The notes beneath the pieces are model-generated. The model was given only the letters and a program-made list of their open reading frames with translations. It ran no database searches and was not told the origin of the DNA. A program made the translations under genes and the position numbers. This document shows positions 11,756 through 21,194 of a stretch of DNA of 64,000 nt, in pieces; positions within the stretch are counted from its first letter, which is position 1, and every line of letters begins with the position of its first letter. Source of the stretch: Actinomycetes bacterium (lineage in GTDB: Bacteria; Actinomycetota; Acidimicrobiia; Acidimicrobiales; RAAP-2); NCBI GenBank assembly GCA_021806045.1, contig JAJZDI010000003.1:62001-126000 (forward strand), read 5' to 3'.

Positions 11756-12457
11756 ATGACCGCCCCGACCGACGCCCCCCCGGGCACCCCGAGGCGTGAC
11801 GAGCTCCTCGCCCGTGCCCGTGAAGCGACCGGCTTCATGCCCGACGACGAGGGAGAGGCCCTCTACGACGCAGCCGTGCGGGCCGGACGGGCCGGCCCGG
11901 GAGCCACGTTCGTCGAGATCGGCGCATGGTGCGGCAAGTCCACCGTCTACCTCGGAGCGGCAGCCGAGGCGACCGGAGCGGTCCTCTTCAGCCTCGACCA
12001 CCACCACGGGTCCGAGGAGAACCAGGCTGGCTGGCCCCACCACGACCCGTCGCTCGTCGATCCCCACACCGGGCGCATCGACACCCTCCCCCACTGGCGG
12101 CGGACCATCGTGGGCGCCGGGCTCGAGGCGAGCGTGGTCGGCGTCGTGGGGGACTCGCCGACGGTGGCATCGCGATGGTCGACACCGCTCGACTTCTGCT
12201 TCATCGACGGGGGCCACGGCGAGGAGCCGGCGTGGGCCGACTTCCGGGGGTGGACGCCCCACGTGCGCGTCGGCGGGTGGCTGGCCATCCACGACGTGTT
12301 CCCCGATCCGGCCGACGGCGGTCGCCCCCCCTACGAGCTGTGGTGCGCCGCCCTCGCCTCGGAGCAGTTCGTCGAGGACGGTGCCTGTGGCTCGTTGCGG
12401 ATCCTGCGGCGGGTCACCGGGCCCGGCGCACCGGAAGAGGGCGACGCGTCGGGCTGA
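11756..12457 (+). CDS. Class I SAM methyltransferase, Methyltransf_24-like
   Basis: 233 residues. Rossmann-fold features are visible: GATFVEIGAWCGKSTVYLGAAAE (motif I), LFSLDHHHGSEENQ (acidic end of strand 2), LDFCFIDGGHGEEP and GGWLAIHDVFPDP. The last two blocks, IDGGH and HDVF, are typical of the metal-associated Methyltransf_24/CmcI-like group. The substrate is unknown. It is a stand-alone gene with a tandem repeat in its upstream region. Confidence 0.82.
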   Translation: MTAPTDAPPGTPRRDELLARAREATGFMPDDEGEALYDAAVRAGRAGPGATFVEIGAWCGKSTVYLGAAAEATGAVLFSLDHHHGSEENQAGWPHHDPSLVDPHTGRIDTLPHWRRTIVGAGLEASVVGVVGDSPTVASRWSTPLDFCFIDGGHGEEPAWADFRGWTPHVRVGGWLAIHDVFPDPADGGRPPYELWCAALASEQFVEDGACGSLRILRRVTGPGAPEEGDASG

Positions 12458-12586
12458 CCGGCACTTCGGAATTGCGGGGTCCAGTGCTCGCGGGAGGTGG
12501 CGCGGTCCTTCGCCCGGTCTCACTGAGTGGCGCGCAGACCCGGCGTTCGGGGGCAGGGAGGTACAGGCGTCGCAGCCAGCCGATAT

Positions 12587-12611
12587 CCTTACATAAGGTA
12601 CTCATGTAAGG
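12587..12611. promoter_or_regulatory. Operator of the AbrB/VapC pair
   Basis: Inverted repeat CCTTACAT (12587-12594), 9 bases, ATGTAAGG (12604-12611). The left half also contains CCTTA-N2-TAAGG. It ends 7 bases before the antitoxin ATG, as expected for autoregulation by AbrB/MazE-type antitoxins. Confidence 0.75.
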
Positions 12612-12618
12612 AAGATCG

Positions 12619-12867
12619 ATGGACGTCGCAGCGAAGGTGACCTCGAAGGGTCAGGTGACCGTCCCGAAGGATGTCCGACGAGCCCTCGGTATCGAGGAAG
12701 GTGACACCGTCATCTTTCACGTCGAAGGCAACCGGGCACTCATGGAGCGAACTCCGGGCTTCCTGGACTTGGCTGGTTCTCTCAAGGTGCCTGCCGCCAA
12801 ACGGAACGTGGCCTGGGACGAGGTAGTGCGGAGATCACGTGCTGCACGGGTCACCAGGCAGCGGTGA
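12619..12867 (+). CDS. AbrB/SpoVT-type antitoxin
   Basis: 82 residues. The swapped-hairpin DNA-binding domain is plain: AAKVTSKGQVTVPKDVRRALG, then IEEGDTVIFHVEGNRALM. The C-terminal third (residues 50-82) is the likely toxin-binding region. It overlaps the downstream PIN toxin by 4 bases (GTGA), and the upstream palindrome is its likely operator. AGGAAG gives a ribosome site. Known members neutralise the VapC partner and repress their own promoter. Confidence 0.9.
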   Translation: MDVAAKVTSKGQVTVPKDVRRALGIEEGDTVIFHVEGNRALMERTPGFLDLAGSLKVPAAKRNVAWDEVVRRSRAARVTRQR

Positions 12868-13256
12868 GCGCCTTCGTCGACACCAACATCCTCGTCCGAC
12901 ACCTGGTGGGTGATCCTCCCGACATGGCCGCTCGCGCAACCGCCTACCTCGGCTCAGAGTCGGAGCTACTCGTCACCGACCTGGTCATCGCCGAAACGGT
13001 CTACGTCCTCGAATCCTTCTACGAGGTCAGCCGCCAGCGCATCGCAACATCGATGCGGTCGTTGCTGACGCTGAACTCGGTGGTCGTCGTCGATGCGGCT
13101 CTCCTGCTTCGCTCCATCGAGATCTATGAGCACGACCGGCTCGACTTCGCCGAGGCCTACCTGGTAGCAAGTGCCGAGTCATCGGGCGTTGATGCAGTGG
13201 CATCATTCGACCGGAGTATCGACCGGGTCGGCACAGTCGAACGGATCGAGCCATAG
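12864..13256 (+). CDS. vapC: PIN-domain toxin (VapC)
   Basis: Magnesium-dependent endoribonuclease toxin, 130 residues. The acidic PIN tetrad is complete: Asp6 (SAFVDTNILVRH), Glu44 (VIAETVYVLE), Asp94 (RLDFAEAYL) and Asp116 (ASFDRS). Starts at the GTG overlapping the antitoxin stop. VapC toxins of this type cut tRNA or rRNA loops; the target here is unknown. The open frame and complete active site suggest a functional pair. Confidence 0.92.
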   Translation: MSAFVDTNILVRHLVGDPPDMAARATAYLGSESELLVTDLVIAETVYVLESFYEVSRQRIATSMRSLLTLNSVVVVDAALLLRSIEIYEHDRLDFAEAYLVASAESSGVDAVASFDRSIDRVGTVERIEP

Positions 13257-13393
13257 AACTTCGCTCGGCGCGCGATCGCCACCGAACCGGCGGTATGGGA
13301 CGCGCGTTCTCCGACGATGTGGGGCGCGTCTGAGGGCGATTGGGGGGCGCGGCGATCGCGATCGCGGACGCCGGGACGTTTGAGCTTGAAGGG

Positions 13394-14305
13394 TCAGCCG
13401 GCGGCGGCGAACGCGACCACGACGTAGGCGGCGTGGCGGTCGAAGTCCTGGCGTCGCCTGTCGTAGACGGTGGTCGTTCTCGGGTCGGCGTGCCTGGCGG
13501 CCACTTGGACCTCTCGGAGCGGGACGCCCGCGTCGAGGGCAGCCATGATGAACGCCGCTCGCAGCATGTGCGGGTGGACCAACCCGAGCTGTGCCCGCTT
13601 GCCTATCGATCGGACCCAGCGGTGGGCGGTGCGCCGGTCGAGGCGTTGACCGTCGTGGCGCAACAGAATGGGACCGTCTCGGCGTTCCCCGACCGCGAGG
13701 TCGATGGTGCGAGCGGTGCGGGGCACCAGCGGTATGAGGGCCGGTTTGTTGCCCTTGCCGATGATCCACAACACCCGGTGCCCTCGTTCGAAAGCCATGT
13801 CTTCGATGTTGGTCTCACAAGCCTCGCTGACCCGCAGACCGTTCAGCCCGAGTAGTACGGCCAGGGAAGCGTGGGCATGGTCGAACCGCTCCGCAGTGAA
13901 GAGGAATCGGCCCAGCTCACCTCTGTCCAGTCCGCGCCGTTCCGAGGAGTGCACGGTCGGCCGGCGAACGTACTGGGCCGGGTTGGAAGAGATGCGGCCG
14001 TCGATGTGAGCAAACCGGTAGAAGCCGCACGCCGTGGACAGGCGCCGGTCGATGGTCGATGCTGCCAGCCCTCGCTCCTCCATTGAGGTCCGGTAGAGCT
14101 CGAGATGGGCTCGGGTGGCCTCGAGGACGGGCAGGCCGTGGTCGGCGGTCCACTGGAACAGGTTGCGCAAGTCGTGACGGTAGGCGTCGAGAGTCCGCCC
14201 GCTGTAGCGAGCGAGGAAAGCCACGGCAGCGAGCTCGGCCTCGTCGGGTGCGATCGACTCGGCCGTGAACGCCAAGACGTCGGTATTGGAATCGATAGTG
14301 GTCAT
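13394..14305 (-). CDS. Tyrosine recombinase / integrase
   Basis: 303 residues. N-terminal SAM-like core-binding domain (about 25-110), then the catalytic domain with all active residues visible: Arg158 (LNGLRVSEACE), Lys184 (GKGNKP), His246 and Arg249 (HPHMLRAAF), His272 (AARHADPRTT) and Tyr281 (TVYDRRR). Size and layout resemble XerC/D-like or cassette-type integrases. The ATG at 14305 follows GGGAG; the ORF open for 53 codons upstream is not needed. It sits between two toxin-antitoxin pairs, so it may mobilise or have mobilised this stretch. No att site was identified. Confidence 0.9.
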   Translation of the reverse strand: MTTIDSNTDVLAFTAESIAPDEAELAAVAFLARYSGRTLDAYRHDLRNLFQWTADHGLPVLEATRAHLELYRTSMEERGLAASTIDRRLSTACGFYRFAHIDGRISSNPAQYVRRPTVHSSERRGLDRGELGRFLFTAERFDHAHASLAVLLGLNGLRVSEACETNIEDMAFERGHRVLWIIGKGNKPALIPLVPRTARTIDLAVGERRDGPILLRHDGQRLDRRTAHRWVRSIGKRAQLGLVHPHMLRAAFIMAALDAGVPLREVQVAARHADPRTTTVYDRRRQDFDRHAAYVVVAFAAAG

Positions 14306-14390
14306 GAGTTGTCTCCCTTCGGGTGGGGAGGCCCAGCCAACTCCTATCGATCCCCGCCGACCCGCTCGACAACTGGACTCGACACCTGTC

Positions 14391-14404
14391 GTACTTTGTA
14401 GTAC
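14391..14404. promoter_or_regulatory. Inverted repeat in the int / BrnT divergent region
   Basis: GTACT-N4-AGTAC, 14391-14404, midway between the divergent integrase and toxin genes. A direct repeat CTCGACA (twice, 13 bases apart) lies next to it. Candidate operator; not matched to a known site. Confidence 0.4.
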
Positions 14405-14449
14405 ATCTGGGGGGTGGCAGGAGTGGACTGGTCCTAGCGGGCCGACTAC

Positions 14450-14695
14450 ATGCGAGAACGCCATGGGATCGAAGTGGAGTGGGCTGATGAGGCACTTGAA
14501 GACCCCGACGCTCTTCGTATCGACCCCGATCCAGCCAGCAGATCGGGACGTTCGGTGAGAACCATCGGCTACGCGACCAAGGCCGGGTACCTCGTCACGG
14601 TCATCACCGTCGAGGAGGCCGGAAGCACCTACGGCGTGAACGGCTGGAAGTCCAACGAGATCGACATCCGCCGTTACCGGGAGGAACGACCATGA
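14450..14695 (+). CDS. BrnT-like toxin, 5' end interrupted by TAG
   Basis: 81 residues from the ATG at 14450: RERHGIEVEWADEALEDP, SRSGRSVRTIGYATKAGYLVTV (in two blocks) and GVNGWKSNEIDIRRYREE. The beta-strand order and the terminal R-x-Y resemble the BrnT ribonuclease toxin family and its distant relatives. In the same frame upstream, GTG GAC TGG TCC TAG CGG GCC GAC TAC leads into the ATG. A reading V-D-W-S-stop-R-A-D-Y would extend the protein naturally. Either translation starts at 14450 with a weak ribosome site, or the toxin has a nonsense mutation at codon 5. It overlaps the antitoxin by 4 bases. Confidence 0.65.
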   Translation: MRERHGIEVEWADEALEDPDALRIDPDPASRSGRSVRTIGYATKAGYLVTVITVEEAGSTYGVNGWKSNEIDIRRYREERP

Positions 14696-15018
14696 GCGAC
14701 ACTGCGAAGATCATCGAAGCCGAGACCGAAGCGTCCGAGGACAACCGCGACGCGCCCATTCCCGAAAGCGCCAAGATCACCAGGCCGAACCGGAGCCGAT
14801 CGACCGTTTATTCGATCCGTCTGAACCCCGACGAGGTCGCCGCACTGCAAGCCATCTCCGACGCAGCCGGCGTCCCAGGATCAACCCTCGCCCGATCATG
14901 GATCGTAGAGCGAATCCAAGAAGAACAGGCCGGAGTCAGCGACGCCGAGGCCGAGCTGCGCGCCGCCCAGCGGCATCTCGCTCACTTGCAGCGCCACTTC
15001 CGCCAACAGGCGTCGTAA
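14692..15018 (+). CDS. RHH-type antitoxin (BrnA/CopG-like)
   Basis: 108 residues. An acidic N-terminal 35 residues is followed by a ribbon-helix-helix-like block, STVYSIRLNPDEVAALQAIS, DAAGVPGSTLARSWIVERIQEE, then a C-terminal amphipathic helix (AEAELRAAQRHLAHLQRHF). It starts at the ATG overlapping the toxin stop (ATGA). Toxin-first order with an RHH antitoxin is the brnT-brnA arrangement. It likely represses the shared promoter and neutralises the toxin. Confidence 0.72.
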   Translation: MSDTAKIIEAETEASEDNRDAPIPESAKITRPNRSRSTVYSIRLNPDEVAALQAISDAAGVPGSTLARSWIVERIQEEQAGVSDAEAELRAAQRHLAHLQRHFRQQAS

Positions 15019-15028
15019 CCTCTCTAAT

Positions 15029-15048
15029 AACGCCCGGCAGCCGGCGTT
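15029..15048 (+). terminator. Hairpin after the RHH antitoxin
   Basis: AACGCC / GGCGTT arms with an inner CGGC-A-GCCG stem, 10 bases after the antitoxin stop. Short, no T-tract; moderate terminator candidate. Confidence 0.45.
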
Positions 15049-15100
15049 GCGGGACGTATCGCTGTCGGGATTCGGGGATGGTTCTCGGGGACATTTGGGG

Positions 15101-15514
15101 CTACGGGAGCAGTTCGAAAGCAGGGGCGTGAGCGGGGCGTACGACAGTGAAGTGGCGGCGGTCGAGGGTGGCGATCTGGGTGACGTGGAGTCTCTCGGCC
15201 GCAGCCACCACTGAGGCGTCGATCGTTCCAAGTGGCAGGTCCCGATAGCGCCCGACGAGTTCAGCGATACGAAGCCAGTCCTCGCCGGCCACAGGCTCAC
15301 TCATCAAGTTGCCGGCGGCGAAGTCTCCTAGGAATCGGATTTCGGCCTCAACACCGAGCCGGCTGGCCAACAGGTATGCCACCTCGGTGACGACAAGTAC
15401 TGGGACGACTAGAGGACCCGGATGAGATTCGAGGAACTCGAGAGCTTCAACGTGGTGGTCGTCGTCGGAGTCGACGTAGGCATATAGCGGTCCGGCGTCG
15501 ACAAGGACCGCTAT
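15101..15514 (-). CDS. PIN-domain toxin (VapC) lacking a standard start codon
   Basis: The complete PIN frame begins at an ATA codon that overlaps the antitoxin TAG (ATAG), where ATGA or GTGA would be usual. It reads IAVLVDAGPLYAYVDSDDD, with Asp6, Glu44 (VVTE), Asp99 (GTIDASVV) and Asp118 (ATLDRRHF) all present, 137 residues. No ATG, GTG or TTG lies between the antitoxin coding region and the GTG at 15382; starting there would lose Asp6 and Glu44. So it is either started at AUA by coupled translation or inactivated by an ATG-to-ATA change. Family assignment is firm, expression is not. Confidence 0.75.
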   Translation of the reverse strand: MAVLVDAGPLYAYVDSDDDHHVEALEFLESHPGPLVVPVLVVTEVAYLLASRLGVEAEIRFLGDFAAGNLMSEPVAGEDWLRIAELVGRYRDLPLGTIDASVVAAAERLHVTQIATLDRRHFTVVRPAHAPAFELLP

Positions 15515-15741
15515 CGGGTTACCTCGTCGCGCAGGATCTCCTCGATCCGTACCGAGACATCGTGGGACCCGCTTCGCCCCGCAGCTGCCGCGATCATTCG
15601 ACGCCGTCCTGTTGGGCGAGACCCGAGATGAGTCTCGATGGCCTCGCGCGTGAGTTCAGATACCGTGACTCGTCTCCGCTCGGCTTCATGGCGGAGTCGG
15701 GCGTCTAGGTCATCAGGTAGCTTTACCGTTGTCCGCTTCAT
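15511..15741 (-). CDS. RHH-type antitoxin (VapB-like)
   Basis: 76 residues. MKRTTVKLPDDLDARLRHEA is the ribbon strand and first helix of a ribbon-helix-helix domain; ERRRVTVSELTREAIETHL is the second. The C-terminal GRSGSHDVSVRIEEILRDE is the toxin-binding tail. It is followed without gap by a PIN toxin. Its ATG lies inside a 34-base perfect palindrome, so both autorepression and mRNA folding could limit its expression. Confidence 0.85.
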   Translation of the reverse strand: MKRTTVKLPDDLDARLRHEAERRRVTVSELTREAIETHLGSRPTGRRRMIAAAAGRSGSHDVSVRIEEILRDEVTR

Positions 15742-15766
15742 GGTATGTCAGCATACCATGAAGCGG
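15733..15766. promoter_or_regulatory. Perfect 15-bp inverted repeat over the antitoxin start
   Basis: CCGCTTCATGGTATG (15733-15747), TCAG, CATACCATGAAGCGG (15752-15766). The antitoxin ATG (15741-15739) lies in one arm. In RNA from this strand it would form a 15-pair hairpin that hides the start codon; in DNA it is an ideal RHH operator. Confidence 0.85.
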
Positions 15767-16034
15767 CCAGCATCTGTAGCTTGCTTACCGACCCCGCCGT
15801 GCGCCCCAAGCCGGCGATCGGGGCGCCCTGCGGCAGCGAAACGGCTCGTCGTTGTGGGCGGGTGCAGCCGATCCCTATCCGTCGATCGGGCGCGATAGTC
15901 GGTCCGACGGAATAGCGCTGCGACGTGTTCCGGATCGGACATTCTGCGCTCGGGGATCGAGTGTTAGAAACGGTCCGGGCGATTCGCTTCGCTCGTGTCA
16001 TCCTGTTCGGGTGTCGGTGACGTTCTAAGGGTTG

Positions 16035-16550
16035 ATGGGCACAGTGGGCGACGGCGACTTTGAGGTGTTCTTCACCGAGGTGATCGGCGAAGCCATCTCA
16101 GTGACTGCCCGCGTACTGGAGGACCGAGGTTCTGCCGAGGACGCTGCGGTGGAAGCGATGGCTCGGGCTCATCTGCGCTGGCGGACCTTGTCGCTCGACC
16201 CCTTCCGCCGAGCGTGGGTTCTGAGGGTCGCCATCAACGCTGCTTTGGACATTCAGCGATCAGACCGCAGCCGCAGAGCCCGCGAGGCTCGCAGCGAGAC
16301 TGCCGCTGTGGGGGCGGACTTCGAGCAGCAAGTCCTGGACCGAATCGTGCTCGGTGGAGCTCTTGGGAAGTTACCCCGCCGTCAGCGCGAGGCGGTCGCG
16401 CTGCGCTATCTGGCCGGGTTGTCGGAAAGGGACGCCGCTGCAGCGATGGGGGTGACTGCCGGGTCGCTCAAGGTGCATCTCCGTCGGGGCTTGGCCGCCT
16501 TGGGGGGTCCGCTGACCCGCGAGATCACTGGTGGTGTTTCCGATGTCTGA
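16035..16550 (+). CDS. ECF RNA polymerase sigma factor (SigE-like)
   Basis: 171 residues. Region 2: FEVFFTEVIGEAISVTARVL, EDAAVEAMARAHLRWRTL and PFRRAWVLRVAINAALD. Region 4: LGKLPRRQREAVALRYLAGLSERDAAAAMGV, TAGSLKVHLRRGLAAL, a clear helix-turn-helix. The ATG at 16035 follows a short AAGGG. It overlaps the downstream membrane gene by 8 bases (ATGTCTGA), which places that gene's product in the position usually taken by an anti-sigma factor. Confidence 0.92.
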   Translation: MGTVGDGDFEVFFTEVIGEAISVTARVLEDRGSAEDAAVEAMARAHLRWRTLSLDPFRRAWVLRVAINAALDIQRSDRSRRAREARSETAAVGADFEQQVLDRIVLGGALGKLPRRQREAVALRYLAGLSERDAAAAMGVTAGSLKVHLRRGLAALGGPLTREITGGVSDV

Positions 16551-17451
16551 CGTTGACGTTCAGCGCCTCTTGGAAGCGACGCTACGGCGCAGCCGTCAGT
16601 TACGAACCCGACGACAGTTATACGCCGCTGGCATAGCTGTTGCCGTGGCCGCCGCCGTCGCCATCCCGGCCGCAGTTCTCTCAGGAGGATCGGCAAGGCA
16701 CGCCGTCATCATCTCGCCTGGTCCGTCTACCTCGAGCACCTCGACAGCACCGGCATCCGTGCTCCCGCCGGGACCCACAGGCACTGTCACAGTCCCAGAC
16801 GTAGCCGGCCAGACCTACCTACCGACGGCACAGATGGCCCTGGCCAACGTCGGACTGATGGCCCAGTATCAGCTTGAGCACAGCACGGCCGTAACGGCCG
16901 GAACGGTGGTGACTCAGGCACCGGCCGCGGGTTCAACGGTTCCGTCCGGCAGCACAGTGACCCTCATCGTCTCAACAGGACCGACGACTATTCCCGGAGC
17001 CCAGCCCTGCCAGGCCTCGGCCCTCAAGGTGCAGCCCGGCCAGCTCGTGTCCGAGGCGAGCGGACAGAACACCATCGACTGGTCACTCACCAACCTCGGC
17101 AACCCGTGCGTCCTCAACGGGTATCCCGCAGTCACGGCCCTCGATCAGCAGGGCCGAGTGCTGAACTTCACCTACTCCCATTCCGGTGACCAGATGACTA
17201 CCGCAGTCCCTCCACAACCGGTATACCTGCCCACGGGAAGCTCAGCCTGGGTAAGGCTGAACAAGTACCGCTGCGACGTCACCGTCCAGAACACAACAAC
17301 TTCCTTCAAGTTCGCCCTGCCATCCGGCGGCGGCTCGCTCGATCTCTCAGATTTGACGCGCATCTTCGACTACTGCGCGGAACCGCCGAGCTTGACGATC
17401 GCCGTCTCCCCCTTTGAGCCAGTTGAAATGCTGCTGTCCGCCAACCCGTAA
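16543..17451 (+). CDS. Membrane protein with PASTA and DUF4232 domains
   Basis: 302 residues. A short basic cytoplasmic segment (about 1-26) is followed by one membrane helix (YAAGIAVAVAAAVAIPAAVL, about 27-48), a Ser/Thr/Pro linker, one PASTA repeat (about 82-150, VTVPDVAGQTYLPTAQMALA ... GSTVTLIVS), and a DUF4232-like domain with four Cys (ACQ-type start at about 158 to the C-terminus). PASTA domains bind muropeptides or beta-lactams in Ser/Thr kinases. Its overlap with the sigma gene suggests an extracytoplasmic sensor acting on the sigma factor through the short N-terminus. That role is inferred. Confidence 0.8.
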   Translation: MSDVDVQRLLEATLRRSRQLRTRRQLYAAGIAVAVAAAVAIPAAVLSGGSARHAVIISPGPSTSSTSTAPASVLPPGPTGTVTVPDVAGQTYLPTAQMALANVGLMAQYQLEHSTAVTAGTVVTQAPAAGSTVPSGSTVTLIVSTGPTTIPGAQPCQASALKVQPGQLVSEASGQNTIDWSLTNLGNPCVLNGYPAVTALDQQGRVLNFTYSHSGDQMTTAVPPQPVYLPTGSSAWVRLNKYRCDVTVQNTTTSFKFALPSGGGSLDLSDLTRIFDYCAEPPSLTIAVSPFEPVEMLLSANP

Positions 17452-17633
17452 GAACGACCGTCACCACCACCTCCGAACCCAAAGCGTTGGGAGGCTACGT
17501 CCACGACATCGATCCCACTGACCGACAAGCCCACGACCTCAGCCCATTCAACATCGAGGCCATAAACCGCCAGAACACGCACCCATATTCGGTTAGTCCT
17601 TCGACGACCCGCCGTCGCGTGCCGAGCAGAATC

Positions 17634-17648
17634 GGCGCTCGGAGCGCC
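17634..17648. repeat. Inverted repeat GGCGCT-CGG-AGCGCC, copy 1
   Basis: Perfect 6-bp arms with CGG between, about 65 bases upstream of the first SepF-like gene. An identical copy with matching flanks lies upstream of the second gene at 18791-18805, so it belongs to the duplicated unit. Operator or terminator, not distinguished. Confidence 0.7.
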
Positions 17649-17700
17649 TCCTCTTCTTGACCCCCCGGGCGACGCAGGCGCGGATCGACCACGGAGGGTC

Positions 17701-17706
17701 TACGCT
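17701..17706 (+). promoter_or_regulatory. Leaderless -10 element of SepF-like gene 1
   Basis: TACGCT, 6 bases before the GTG at 17713, inside GGTCTACGCTC, which is kept word for word upstream of the second copy. Confidence 0.6.
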
Positions 17707-17712
17707 CGCGGC

Positions 17713-18288
17713 GTGGACGGTGAACCTCTTCCGGCGGCTGGAGATGCGCCGCAGGAGCGGATGGCCGTGATACGGACGTTCGGCGGCACAAAGCCGCTAA
17801 TCGCGATGCTCAACGCTGGTCATCCTGTCTTGGCCGTCCTGAGAACCTCCGAGGAAGAGCGGCGTCGGGTCGTGGATTTTCTGAGTGGGTGGGCGGTCGG
17901 TGCTGGCGGCGAGCTGGACAAGATCGGGCCGAACACGATCTTGGCTCGTCCGCCCGGCAGCCGAGCAGTCCACTTGGGCCGATCATCGCTCGTCTCGGCG
18001 GTGCAAGAGGTCTTTGCCGGCGACGATCCGCACCCACTGAGCCGCGAAGACGAGGAACGTCTGCTTCCGCTGGCTGTCGCTGGCTCCGCAGGCGCTCGCC
18101 GCAGGCTCATTGACGCCTACTCCGATTTCGCCACCGTCTTCGCCCTACGGATCCGCCCCCAGACCGTCTCGGAGGGGGCCGCCGTTCGGGCGGCACAGCA
18201 GGAGTTGGAGCGCTTGGCCAGCTTCCCCTCCCACGGTCCAATGCTGGCCTCGTTGGCGGAGGGGATCAGCAAGATCCTCCTGGGCTAA
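17713..18288 (+). CDS. SepF-domain protein with sigma-like C-terminus, copy 1
   Basis: 191 residues. Residues 17-82 match the SepF fold: VIRTFGGTKPLIAMLNAGHP, VLAVLRTSEEERRRVVDFLS, GGELDKIGPNTILARPPG. SepF in mycobacteria has the same pattern (hydrophobic strand, RLVDFAAG, G-x-x-DKV, FLL-x-P). Residues 108-190 are helical: LSREDEERLLPLAVAGSAGARRRLIDAYSDF resembles sigma-70 region 1.2-2.1, and RLASFPSHGPMLASLAEGI resembles regions 2.2-2.3. No region 4 or FtsZ-binding tail was recognised. The GTG start is 6 bases after TACGCT. The fusion is inferred by eye. Confidence 0.7.
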   Translation: MDGEPLPAAGDAPQERMAVIRTFGGTKPLIAMLNAGHPVLAVLRTSEEERRRVVDFLSGWAVGAGGELDKIGPNTILARPPGSRAVHLGRSSLVSAVQEVFAGDDPHPLSREDEERLLPLAVAGSAGARRRLIDAYSDFATVFALRIRPQTVSEGAAVRAAQQELERLASFPSHGPMLASLAEGISKILLG

Positions 18289-18385
18289 CCGGCCAAACGC
18301 ATAAAAATCCATCCTGCGCCTGTCCTTGTCGGGACTGCGCTCCCACGACATGCCCGGGAATCGGCGCTCTGCGCTCCGGGACGCG

Positions 18386-18715
18386 CTACCACCTGGCCCC
18401 GCACCAGCAGATGTGGTCGGAGTCATGGCCAGCGGGGGACGCACACAGATGGAAGCCACCCTCGTGCGTTGGCATCGCCTGCGGACCCGTGTCGGCTGAG
18501 TCGAGGCCGACCATGCACTTCCCCGCGGTGCGTCGCTGAGCGACTACTGGGGGATCGGCTGGCTCCTCCCAGGATGACCCAGCTCGGTGCCAGTCTCTGC
18601 CGCACTCAAGGCATCGACCGACGCCCCCCGGCGCGCCGGCCTTTAGATGCTCCTGCCAGTCGCCCAACTCTGGGGCCGCGACCTCAACGGCACCTCCGCA
18701 AGATGGACAGGGCAC
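18386..18715 (-). CDS. Putative zinc-ribbon protein, 109 residues
   Basis: Lies between the two SepF-like genes on the opposite strand. Begins at a GTG with PCPSCGGAVEVAAPE, then GVGRCLECGRDWHRAGSSWEE, and ends HLCASPAGHDSDHICWCGARW. CPSC plus CLEC form a likely four-cysteine zinc ribbon, and a second C/H cluster ends the protein. No family is recognised. The cysteine spacing argues against a chance ORF, but there is no clear ribosome site. Confidence 0.55.
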   Translation of the reverse strand: MPCPSCGGAVEVAAPELGDWQEHLKAGAPGGVGRCLECGRDWHRAGSSWEEPADPPVVAQRRTAGKCMVGLDSADTGPQAMPTHEGGFHLCASPAGHDSDHICWCGARW

Positions 18716-18790
18716 ACCTCATTCTGGTCGGCCGCGCCAGAACATGAGCGCATCCGATTATGGCGGACGACCGAGCCGGCGCTCGTAGTC

Positions 18791-18805
18791 GGCGCTCGGA
18801 GCGCC
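18791..18805. repeat. Inverted repeat GGCGCT-CGG-AGCGCC, copy 2
   Basis: Same 15 bases as at 17634-17648, with the shared flank TCGGCGCTCGGAGCGCCTC, about 65 bases before the second SepF-like GTG. Confidence 0.7.
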
Positions 18806-18858
18806 TCGTCCTCTCGTCCTGGCCGGGCGCCGTCGGCGCAGAACGAGCGACGAAGGTC

Positions 18859-18864
18859 TACGCT
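18859..18864 (+). promoter_or_regulatory. Leaderless -10 element of SepF-like gene 2
   Basis: TACGCT, 6 bases before the GTG at 18871; same sequence and spacing as the first copy. Confidence 0.6.
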
Positions 18865-18870
18865 CATAGC

Positions 18871-19446
18871 GTGGTCGGTGAGCCTCTCCCAGCGGCAGGG
18901 GATGCGGCGCAGGAGCGGATGGCGGTCATACGAACCTTCGGCGGCACCAAGCCGCTCATTGCGATGCTCAACGCCGGCCATCCGGTCTTGGCCGTGCTCA
19001 GAACCTCCGACGAAGAACGCCGCCGGGTACTGGACTTTCTGGGCGGGTGGGCGCTCGGAGCCGGCGGCGAGTTGGACAAGATCGGGCCGAACACGATCCT
19101 GGCTCGTCCGCCGGGGTGCGGAGCGGTCCATCTGAGCCGATTGTCCTTCGTCTCGGCAGTGGAGGAAGTCTTTGCCAGCGACGATCCGCACCCGCTGACC
19201 CGGGAAGAGGAGGAACGTCTGCTTCCCCTGGCTCTTGTTGGCTCAGCAGGCGCTCGCCGCAGGCTTATTGACGCCTACAGCGAGTTCGCCACCGTCTTCG
19301 CACTACGGATTCGCCCACAGTCCGTTTCGGAGGGGACCGCCATCCGGGCGGCACAACAGGAGCTGGAACGCTTGGTCAGCTTCCCTTCGCACGGTCCGCT
19401 GCTGGCCTCCCTGGCGCAGGGAATCAGCAAGATCCTCTTGGGCTAA
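18871..19446 (+). CDS. SepF-domain protein with sigma-like C-terminus, copy 2
   Basis: 191 residues, exactly the length of the first copy and without indels. By eye about two dozen residues differ (roughly 87% identity), mostly conservative, while many third codon positions differ. That pattern means both copies have been kept under protein-level selection since an old duplication. Differences cluster in residues 83-122, between the SepF core and the sigma-like helices (for example SRAVHLGRSSL versus CGAVHLSRLSF). The longer in-frame upstream ORF is not needed, since the conserved TACGCT and GTG define the start. Same uncertainty of function as copy 1. Confidence 0.7.
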   Translation: MVGEPLPAAGDAAQERMAVIRTFGGTKPLIAMLNAGHPVLAVLRTSDEERRRVLDFLGGWALGAGGELDKIGPNTILARPPGCGAVHLSRLSFVSAVEEVFASDDPHPLTREEEERLLPLALVGSAGARRRLIDAYSEFATVFALRIRPQSVSEGTAIRAAQQELERLVSFPSHGPLLASLAQGISKILLG

Positions 19447-19552
19447 CTGGCTCGCACATAAGACCATCTCGCGCTCGGGACGCCAGTGGAGCCGTGCCTC
19501 GGCGAGGGCGCGTGATTCGGCGCTCGGCCTCCTGATCGGGCAATCTGGCGGA

Positions 19553-19807
19553 GTGCCAGGAGTGGAGGACCATCCGGTCAACGGCCCCCTCAACGCCCTG
19601 ATCGAGGCTTGGTGTGATCGGAGGGACCTCAGGCCACTGGCCCTGCTCCTTCCTGCTTGCACGAGCAACTTCGGGCTCACCGACGGCTGGACAGAGGTCA
19701 TGGAGGCCCTCTACGACCTTCGGGCGCGGGGTCGATTGCCCGACGATGAGGAGGCAGAGGTGGAGCGCATAATCCCGATCGTCGAACGGATGGTGTACCG
19801 CACCTGA
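19553..19807 (+). CDS. Small unknown protein, 84 residues
   Basis: Starts at a GTG (PGVEDHPVNGPLNALIEAW), 107 bases after the second SepF-like gene. Helical, acidic, with alternating Leu pattern: CDRRDLRPLALLLPACTS, GWTEVMEALYDLRARGRLP, DDEEAEVERIIPIVERMVYR. No family recognised. The frame and composition are protein-like and it is likely part of the SepF-like gene neighbourhood. A GTG three codons later is an alternative start. Confidence 0.55.
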   Translation: MPGVEDHPVNGPLNALIEAWCDRRDLRPLALLLPACTSNFGLTDGWTEVMEALYDLRARGRLPDDEEAEVERIIPIVERMVYRT

Positions 19808-20093
19808 TCGGCTTCAGCCGCGCCCGAGTCGGCGATCTGGATCAGGACGGGTAGCACATATCACGCGGATCGCCTATCCCACTACGGCGAGTACCCCCTG
19901 CCCCACTCGTGCCGTTCATGGGCAGACAACGATCGCGAGCACCCATGGCCTCGCAGCCGGGTCGACCCCGCTCACATCCGAAGAGCTGGATGACCGGGGC
20001 AGATGAGGCGCCGGTGCCCCGAGTGGGTGACTCGCGGCGCCGCAGTGAGGCGGCGAGCTGAGCGGATGGATCGACCCGCACCGGCGCCGCGGA

Positions 20094-21194
20094 TCAGCTC
20101 GGCTGCGCCCGGAAGGGGAACGCTGGCTCGACCGGGGCGCCGGGAGCGGGCTCCGTCAGGTCGAGATGGCCGGGCAGGCCGTCGCCACGGAAGATCCCCG
20201 ACGCCGGGGTCGTTCGGCTCACCGCGTCCACGGCGAGGATCATGGCGCCGGCCGTGTAGGTGGAGCGCTCGAGGGGCGGGTAGGTGGCCTCGTCGGGGAA
20301 GACCATGCCCGTCCAGTAGGAACCGTCGTCGTTGCGGAGCTGCTGGACCCAGCGCAGGAGCTGCTCGGCCCGGACCGAGTCGCCGATGGCGTCGAGGGCC
20401 AGGACGCACTCTGCTGTCTCCGCCGCCGTGACCCAGTCCCCGGTCGACACACACCGGACCCCTGCCCCGTCCAAGACGAACGTCTGCCAGCCGGCATCGA
20501 TGTGGGCGGCTGCCTTCGACCCGGTGAGCGCTCCCGACAGGATCGGGTAGTACCAGTCCATGGCGAATTCGTGCTTGGGGGCGAACGCATCGGGATCGTG
20601 GGCGAGCGCCTGGCACAGCCGGACAGCGGCGATCTCCCAGTCCGGCCGCTCCCGTCCGAGCTGCTCGGCGATGGCGATGGCGCACCGCAGGCTGTGGTAG
20701 ATCGACGACGACCCGGTCAGGAGGGCGTACCCCTCCAGGTAGCCGGCGGGATCGAGGGACCAGTGGACCGAACCGTCGATCCGCTGGTAGCGCAGGACGA
20801 ATTCGATGGCCGCCTCCACCGTCGGCCACAGGGCCTCGAGCCCGGCCAGTTCGCCCGTCGACATGTACCGGTGCCAGGCTCCGGTGGCGACGTACGCGCA
20901 CACGTTGGTGTCGAGCCGGGGGTCCTTCACACCCGCGCCCAGGTAGTAGTTGAACCAGCTGCCGTCGGGGAGCTGGGTGGCGGCCAGCCACCGGTAGGCG
21001 GCGTCGGCCTCGTCGTCCATGCCGCATGCGGTCAGGGCCATCGCCGCCTCGATGTGGTTCCACGGGTCGCAGTGCCCGCCGGGGAACCAGGGGATCATGC
21101 CGTCGCCCCGCTGCACGTCGGCGATCGACCGGGCGGTGGCCAGCACCTCGGCCGCGCTGAGAATTCCGGGAGCCTCGGGGATGGCGCGCATCAC
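20094..21194 (-). CDS. Alpha/alpha-barrel protein of the prenyltransferase/cyclase type
   Basis: 366 residues, with repeated helical hairpins typical of (alpha/alpha)6 barrels: QRGDGMIPWFPGGHCDPWNHIE, AATQLPDGSWFNYYLG, LRYQRIDGSVHWSLDP and QLRNDDGSYWTG. The recurring DG-S-W element is the QW-like motif of squalene cyclase and prenyltransferase-beta folds. Actinobacterial relatives are labelled prenyltransferase but have no proven activity. Last gene of a three-gene operon; it begins 7 bases after the methyltransferase. The position suggests a role in making or trimming a glycosylated surface molecule. Confidence 0.7.
   Translation of the reverse strand: MMRAIPEAPGILSAAEVLATARSIADVQRGDGMIPWFPGGHCDPWNHIEAAMALTACGMDDEADAAYRWLAATQLPDGSWFNYYLGAGVKDPRLDTNVCAYVATGAWHRYMSTGELAGLEALWPTVEAAIEFVLRYQRIDGSVHWSLDPAGYLEGYALLTGSSSIYHSLRCAIAIAEQLGRERPDWEIAAVRLCQALAHDPDAFAPKHEFAMDWYYPILSGALTGSKAAAHIDAGWQTFVLDGAGVRCVSTGDWVTAAETAECVLALDAIGDSVRAEQLLRWVQQLRNDDGSYWTGMVFPDEATYPPLERSTYTAGAMILAVDAVSRTTPASGIFRGDGLPGHLDLTEPAPGAPVEPAFPFRAQPS

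What the first reader, a model, noticed from the sequence alone, without database searches (positions are those of the whole stretch)
17634..18871. Duplicated upstream module: inverted repeat plus identical leaderless -10 before both SepF-like genes
Seen: GGCGCT-CGG-AGCGCC at 17634 and 18791, GGTCTACGCTC at 17697 and 18855, GTG exactly 6 bases after TACGCT in both. The intervening sequence has diverged, so these parts were retained. This suggests a common operator or regulator for the pair.
Basis: seen in the sequence. Interest (0 to 1): 0.5.

Follow-up and report, generated by a model that had tools for sequence, protein, structure and literature searches.

The report
Duplicated leaderless SepF-like genes on island
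Two side-by-side copies of a rare SepF-like gene, on a small stretch of foreign-looking DNA, each keep an ordinary promoter placed right at the gene start and a small palindrome upstream that may be a regulator's binding site; most of the likeness is explained by gene duplication.

Summary
In detail: the 15-bp palindrome, GGTCTACGCTC and the TACGCT-N6-GTG spacing are exact in both copies. The pair is an old duplication (17568-18386 against 18735-19541; 67 of 105 four-fold sites identical), so likeness is inherited by default. The -10 is no sign of a special regulator: TANNNT 6-8 bases before a start codon is this genome's general leaderless signal (54 matches at three offsets, 48 at the other 28), and both full-length orthologues found keep that geometry. 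The palindrome is the interesting part: it lies in the longest identical upstream run (19 columns) while the spacer is at neutral identity. Retention is suggestive, not decisive (P 0.002 to 0.22 over the nulls tried), and neither orthologue has it. Centred 72-73 bases before the start codon, it is most likely an operator; a terminator-like hairpin and chance are rivals. Ordinary overall; modest interest.

The parts
17634..17648 (.). Palindrome copy 1 (7-base arms, 1-base centre), bases -79 to -65 from the GTG
18791..18805 (.). Palindrome copy 2, identical, bases -80 to -66 from the GTG
17701..17706 (+). TACGCT, leaderless-type -10 of copy 1, 6 bases before GTG
18859..18864 (+). TACGCT, leaderless-type -10 of copy 2, 6 bases before GTG
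17713..18288 (+). SepF-like gene 1, 191 aa, start GTG
   Evidence: PF04472 E 5.3e-7, 30.2 bits, cut-off 27
18871..19446 (+). SepF-like gene 2, 191 aa, 87% identical to gene 1; an in-frame ATG at 18760 also exists
   Evidence: PF04472 E 7.6e-6, 26.5 bits, just under cut-off 27
17568..18386 (+). Duplicated tract, copy 1
   Evidence: blastn self-comparison, 79.1% over 823 columns
18735..19541 (+). Duplicated tract, copy 2
18361..18369 (+). TCGGCGCTC after gene 1, same word as the left half of the palindrome
19517..19525 (+). TCGGCGCTC after gene 2
12435..20079 (.). Low-GC segment (0.65 against 0.73 left and 0.726 right), missing at this place in same-genus genome G001
13394..14464 (-). Tyrosine integrase on the same segment
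   Evidence: PF00589 E 1e-19
16032..16550 (+). ECF-type sigma factor gene upstream
   Evidence: PF08281 E 9.4e-14
16531..17451 (+). PASTA + DUF4232 gene, next upstream of SepF-like gene 1
   Evidence: PF03793 E 2.1e-11, PF14016 E 7.8e-11

Best explanation
The two modules are two diverged copies of one leaderless gene unit, duplicated on an island-like segment. RNA polymerase recognises TACGCT as -10 and starts at, or within a base or so of, the GTG, so each gene has its own promoter; -10 and start codon are kept because a leaderless gene needs both. The palindrome, centred 72-73 bases upstream, would lie outside a leaderless transcript and is most likely a DNA site for a dimeric regulator that controls both copies. 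Shown: the sequences, the duplication, the general -10 geometry, a moderate excess retention of the palindrome. Inferred: the transcription start, protein binding, the sign of the regulation and the regulator.
For: TANNNT stands 6, 7 and 8 bases before 28, 14 and 12 of 1857 candidate start codons in 244 crude ORF calls, against 48 for the other 28 offsets together. Orthologues L012 (TACGCT-N6-GTG) and L038 (TAGTCT-N6-ATG) keep the geometry. Palindrome within an identical run of 19 while the spacer shows 30 of 47. Perfect palindromes of this form number 15 in the 64-kb window, about 0.025 per 105 bases by hand. The palindromes are 1157 apart, the start codons 1158, so the palindrome is in a different reading frame in the two copies, against coding as the cause.
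Against: Retention P is 0.06 to 0.22 under the more cautious nulls. Best matches upstream of L012 and L038 have 6 and 4 mismatches, shuffle P 0.99 and 0.18. Only one other exact place in the genome, in what looks like an unrelated divergent intergenic region. At one mismatch 13 strand-matches at ten places, 9 of them outside this locus, where 6.5 are expected: no clear regulon.
Confidence: 0.5

Rival explanations
1. The palindrome works as an RNA hairpin, a terminator or insulator that stops read-through from upstream into each leaderless promoter.
For: Copy 1 is one of two terminator-like sites in 16500-20500 (tail TCCTCTTCTT). Taken as 36-base pieces both copies fold into the 6-pair hairpin, -10.1 kcal/mol.
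Against: Two sites against 1.4 expected in shuffles; copy 2 does not pass the scan. The hairpin energies are within shuffles (21 of 200 and 104 of 200 fold as well) and in the 101-base folds the hairpin is not the predicted structure. The sites lie 183 and 503 bases after the preceding + strand stop codons (coordinates).
Confidence: 0.25
2. The palindrome is a chance survivor: nothing binds it, and the copies happen to agree there.
For: P up to 0.22 under cautious nulls; no orthologue shares it; no regulon.
Against: P 0.002 to 0.017 at identities 0.60 to 0.64, the latter being the four-fold yardstick; the surviving run is also a perfect palindrome.
Confidence: 0.2
3. TCGGCGCTC, found before and after each gene, marks the borders of a recombining unit, and the palindrome is a recombination site.
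For: 4 of the 5 window copies of TCGGCGCTC flank these genes, all in one orientation, against 13 in 400 kb elsewhere; the segment carries an integrase.
Against: Homology runs past the words on both sides and 348 unduplicated bases separate the tracts. Given the duplication only one independent coincidence is needed. A longer form, WTCGGCGCTCKG, has 5 matches in the genome where 9.8 are expected.
Confidence: 0.05

Closest known systems
Leaderless promoters of Actinobacteria (TANNNT about 12 bases before the start codon; PMC3160421, PMC3898074, passages seen)
   Same: TACGCT fits TANNNT; its first T is 12 bases before the GTG; both orthologues keep this; the genome as sampled is enriched for it.
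   Different: Nothing in the -10 part differs. The upstream palindrome is not part of the general signal.
[quoted passage not shown]
   Same: SepF domain by Pfam and by PDB-profile match.
   Different: A conserved C-terminal part of about 80 residues with no Pfam match; rare in the genomes searched; tandem and on an island-like segment. I did not compare these proteins with SepF2 or SepF3 by sequence.
Operators of dimeric regulators upstream of bacterial promoters (general knowledge)
   Same: Perfect palindrome at a fixed distance (60-61 bases from its centre to the -10) from two promoters.
   Different: No known consensus was matched and no regulator was assigned.

Membership tests
Leaderless promoter | TANNNT about 12 bases (first T) before the start codon | tested here: met
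   Exact in both copies; same in L012 and L038; enriched in the genome sample
Leaderless promoter | Transcript 5' end at the start codon | not testable with these tools
   Needs TSS mapping
SepF | PF04472 domain above curated cut-off | tested here: inconclusive
   Copy 1 30.2 bits (above 27), copy 2 26.5 bits (just below); alignment profile matches SepF chains 3zih, 8hzt, 8hzq, 3zii at E 5e-6 to 9e-5
SepF | Binds FtsZ and the membrane | not testable with these tools
   No experiment; FtsZ-contact residues and an N-terminal amphipathic helix were not examined
Intrinsic terminator | GC-rich hairpin followed by a T-rich tail | tested here: inconclusive
   Copy 1 passes the scan, copy 2 does not
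Genomic island | Deviant composition, an integrase gene, and absence at the same place in a close relative | tested here: met
   GC 0.65 against 0.73; PF00589; flanks 38 bases apart in G001, 104 in G035, 1731 in G003
Genomic island | Flanking direct repeats (att sites) | tested here: not met
   No shared direct word of 10 bases or more between 12300-12900 and 19500-20300. Imperfect or shorter repeats were not tested, so I say island-like

The most novel reading that the evidence does not exclude
A mobile island carries a duplicated SepF-like protein with an added C-terminal helical part, both copies under one island-specific operator, as a switchable modulator of the host's cell division.
Probability: 0.08. 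Interest if true: 0.5.

Novelty: new member of a known kind. Interest (0 to 1): 0.22.

Why it matters
It shows a leaderless gene duplicated with its promoter as one compact unit, and gives two natural variants of one upstream region with which to test what such a region needs besides the -10. The island setting makes the SepF-like pair a possible way for a mobile element to touch cell division, but that is a lead only.

Tried and rejected
A shared -10 as the mark of a special sigma factor: rejected, because the geometry is general and kept in orthologues. The palindrome as a genome-wide regulon site: not supported (three exact places; 13 strand-matches at ten places with one mismatch, 9 outside this locus, 6.5 expected). 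Of the eight places outside this locus I read one (C39) and looked for covering frames at that one and five more; two on C36 were not looked at. The palindrome as coding sequence: copy 2 has an upstream in-frame ATG at 18760, but the one-base shift between the copies speaks against it. Relatives in viral contigs, plasmids and phages: none found. Direct repeats at the segment ends: none of 10 bases or more in the stretches compared. tRNA: none in the window. Rfam: none at gathering score in the window, and one chance-level match near the right end (E 0.95). A sigma-factor-like reading of the C-terminal part, first suggested by eye: a single NCBIfam match for copy 1 (SigI, E 0.11), none for copy 2, no Pfam match for four C-terminal parts; left open. 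Structure prediction was poor (mean pLDDT 55.7, four sequences), so no fold search was run. Defence library: matches only for 16531-17451, to PD-T4-6 models over residues that overlap its PASTA domain. Literature: three papers seen as passages; the searches were seen as listings only; one search returned no paper.

Full report
Observation. The sequence claims are exact. The palindrome has 7-base arms around one base; 15 such perfect palindromes occur in the 64-kb window. The two genes encode 191-residue proteins, 87% identical, with a SepF domain at residues 21-82 (PF04472; copy 1 above, copy 2 just below the curated cut-off). A profile of the four full-length sequences matches solved SepF chains at best E 5e-6, and a MutL chain weakly (E 0.0029).

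Duplication. Self-comparison shows one long duplicated tract, 17568-18386 against 18735-19541, 79% identical over 823 columns, which reaches beyond the genes on both sides. Codon positions 1, 2 and 3 are 88, 97 and 71% identical, and 67 of 105 four-fold sites, so the copies are old and not freshly homogenised. The 348 bases between the tracts hold a minus-strand ORF, 18386-18715, 109 codons, Cys-rich; Pfam zinc-ribbon-type and Lar matches are all below cut-off, and of 148 genomes, the own one included, one other had a weak match (E 4.6e-4).

Is the retention more than chance? Before the palindrome run 16 of 31 columns are identical (8 of the 31 with gaps), between the runs 30 of 47 (1 gap); the palindrome sits in a run of 19, the -10 in a run of 11. 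With identity 0.60, 0.64, 0.70 and 0.75, P(run of 19 or more) is 0.002, 0.007, 0.033 and 0.10 over 112 columns and 0.005, 0.017, 0.077 and 0.22 over 250. Permuting the columns gives 0.014 with gap columns and 0.06 without; Fisher for 15 of 15 against 63 of 89 gives 0.02. The longest identical runs inside the coding part are 26, 20 and 17, so a run of 19 is striking only because the spacer has diverged. The element was chosen after seeing it. That the surviving run is also a perfect palindrome adds weight: by hand, about 0.025 such palindromes are expected per 105 bases.

The -10. In 464 kb (window, 320 kb of C9, 80 kb of C39), with 244 crude ORF calls and 1857 candidate ATG/GTG codons, TANNNT stands 6, 7 or 8 bases upstream 28, 14 and 12 times; the other 28 offsets from 0 to 30 hold 48 together. 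The sample includes the window, so the two genes may be among the 28. Genome-wide TACGCT-N6-GTG has 21 matches and its reversal 7. This is the known leaderless signal (PMC3160421 and PMC3898074, passages). The two full-length orthologues found have the same geometry: L012 in G052 (61% identical; TACGCT-GAGGAG-GTG) and L038 in G324 (48%; TAGTCT-CTTTGG-ATG). G052 is listed with 9% contamination, so the host of L012 is uncertain.

The palindrome elsewhere. Three exact places in the genome: the two here and C39:132944, which lies between divergent genes that by eye are a thioredoxin-domain-type protein and a short-chain dehydrogenase, if the latter starts at its ATG at L003:1603; open frames do cover the site. 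With one mismatch there are 13 strand-matches at ten places, 9 of them outside this locus, where 6.5 are expected. Upstream of L012 and L038 the best matches have 6 and 4 mismatches, shuffle P 0.99 and 0.18. So there is no clear regulon and no deep conservation. The word TCGGCGCTC from its left half also stands after each gene (18361, 19517; 4 of 5 window copies flank these genes; 13 in 400 kb elsewhere), but WTCGGCGCTCKG has 5 genome matches where 9.8 are expected, so I give this little weight.

How it most likely works. If transcription starts at the GTG, the palindrome (bases -79 to -65 and -80 to -66) is outside that transcript and acts as DNA, most simply as an operator, or as a hairpin in read-through RNA. 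Copy 1 passes the terminator scan and copy 2 does not; the short hairpin folds are within shuffles, and the 101-base folds do not predict the hairpin. I put 0.5 on the operator reading, 0.25 on the hairpin, 0.2 on chance survival, 0.05 on a recombination border.

Same-genus genome G001 matches the window at 83% up to 12434 and from 20080 on, with 38 bases between in G001; in G035 the flanks are 104 bases apart and in G003 1731; the G022 contig was too short to tell. Window 12435-20079 is therefore missing at this place in G001; whether its left part (12435-15499) occurs elsewhere in G001 was not searched. Its GC is 0.65 against 0.73 left and 0.726 right. It carries a tyrosine integrase, one clear PIN-domain gene (12864-13256) and one weak PIN match below cut-off (15101-15382), a small protein with weak DUF6290/NikA-like matches below cut-off (14692-15018), an ECF sigma gene and a PASTA/DUF4232 gene. 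A 91-bp stretch near the right end (19909-19999) recurs at 88% on contig C36, beside what by eye is another tyrosine integrase.

How rare is the gene? At E 1e-15, 2 of 172 family genomes, 1 of 397 order genomes and 1 of 396 phylum genomes have it, each count including the window's own genome; the samples overlap. The class sample at E 1e-12 gave 3 of 395, own included, one of them a C-terminal piece. In the larger samples only up to 8 candidates per genome were scored, so misses are possible. Among 148 relatives at E 1e-5 there were 26 with a match, but all except the own genome and G052 matched weakly (E 2e-7 to 1e-5) over the SepF domain only, as canonical SepF would. Two C-terminal pieces, L037 and L039, look like remnants.

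Verdict. Real and mostly ordinary: a duplicated leaderless unit on an island-like segment, with a candidate operator that deserves one reporter experiment.

Noticed in passing
12435-20079: Low-GC segment with integrase, PIN, ECF sigma and PASTA/DUF4232 genes, missing at this place in a same-genus genome.
   Followed up: partly
19909-19999: 91-bp stretch repeated at 88% on contig C36 (178180-178270) beside what by eye is another tyrosine integrase; possibly an old attachment sequence.
   Followed up: partly
18386-18715: Cys-rich minus-strand ORF that nearly fills the unduplicated gap between the two tracts; no confident family.
   Followed up: partly
18037-18285 and 19195-19443: Conserved C-terminal part of the SepF-like proteins, predicted helical at low confidence, with no Pfam match; a weak SigI match for copy 1 only.
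   Followed up: partly
L037:753-923: Remnant of the same C-terminal part in an actinobacterial contig, near what by eye are PIN and VapB-type genes, similar company to this segment.
   Followed up: no
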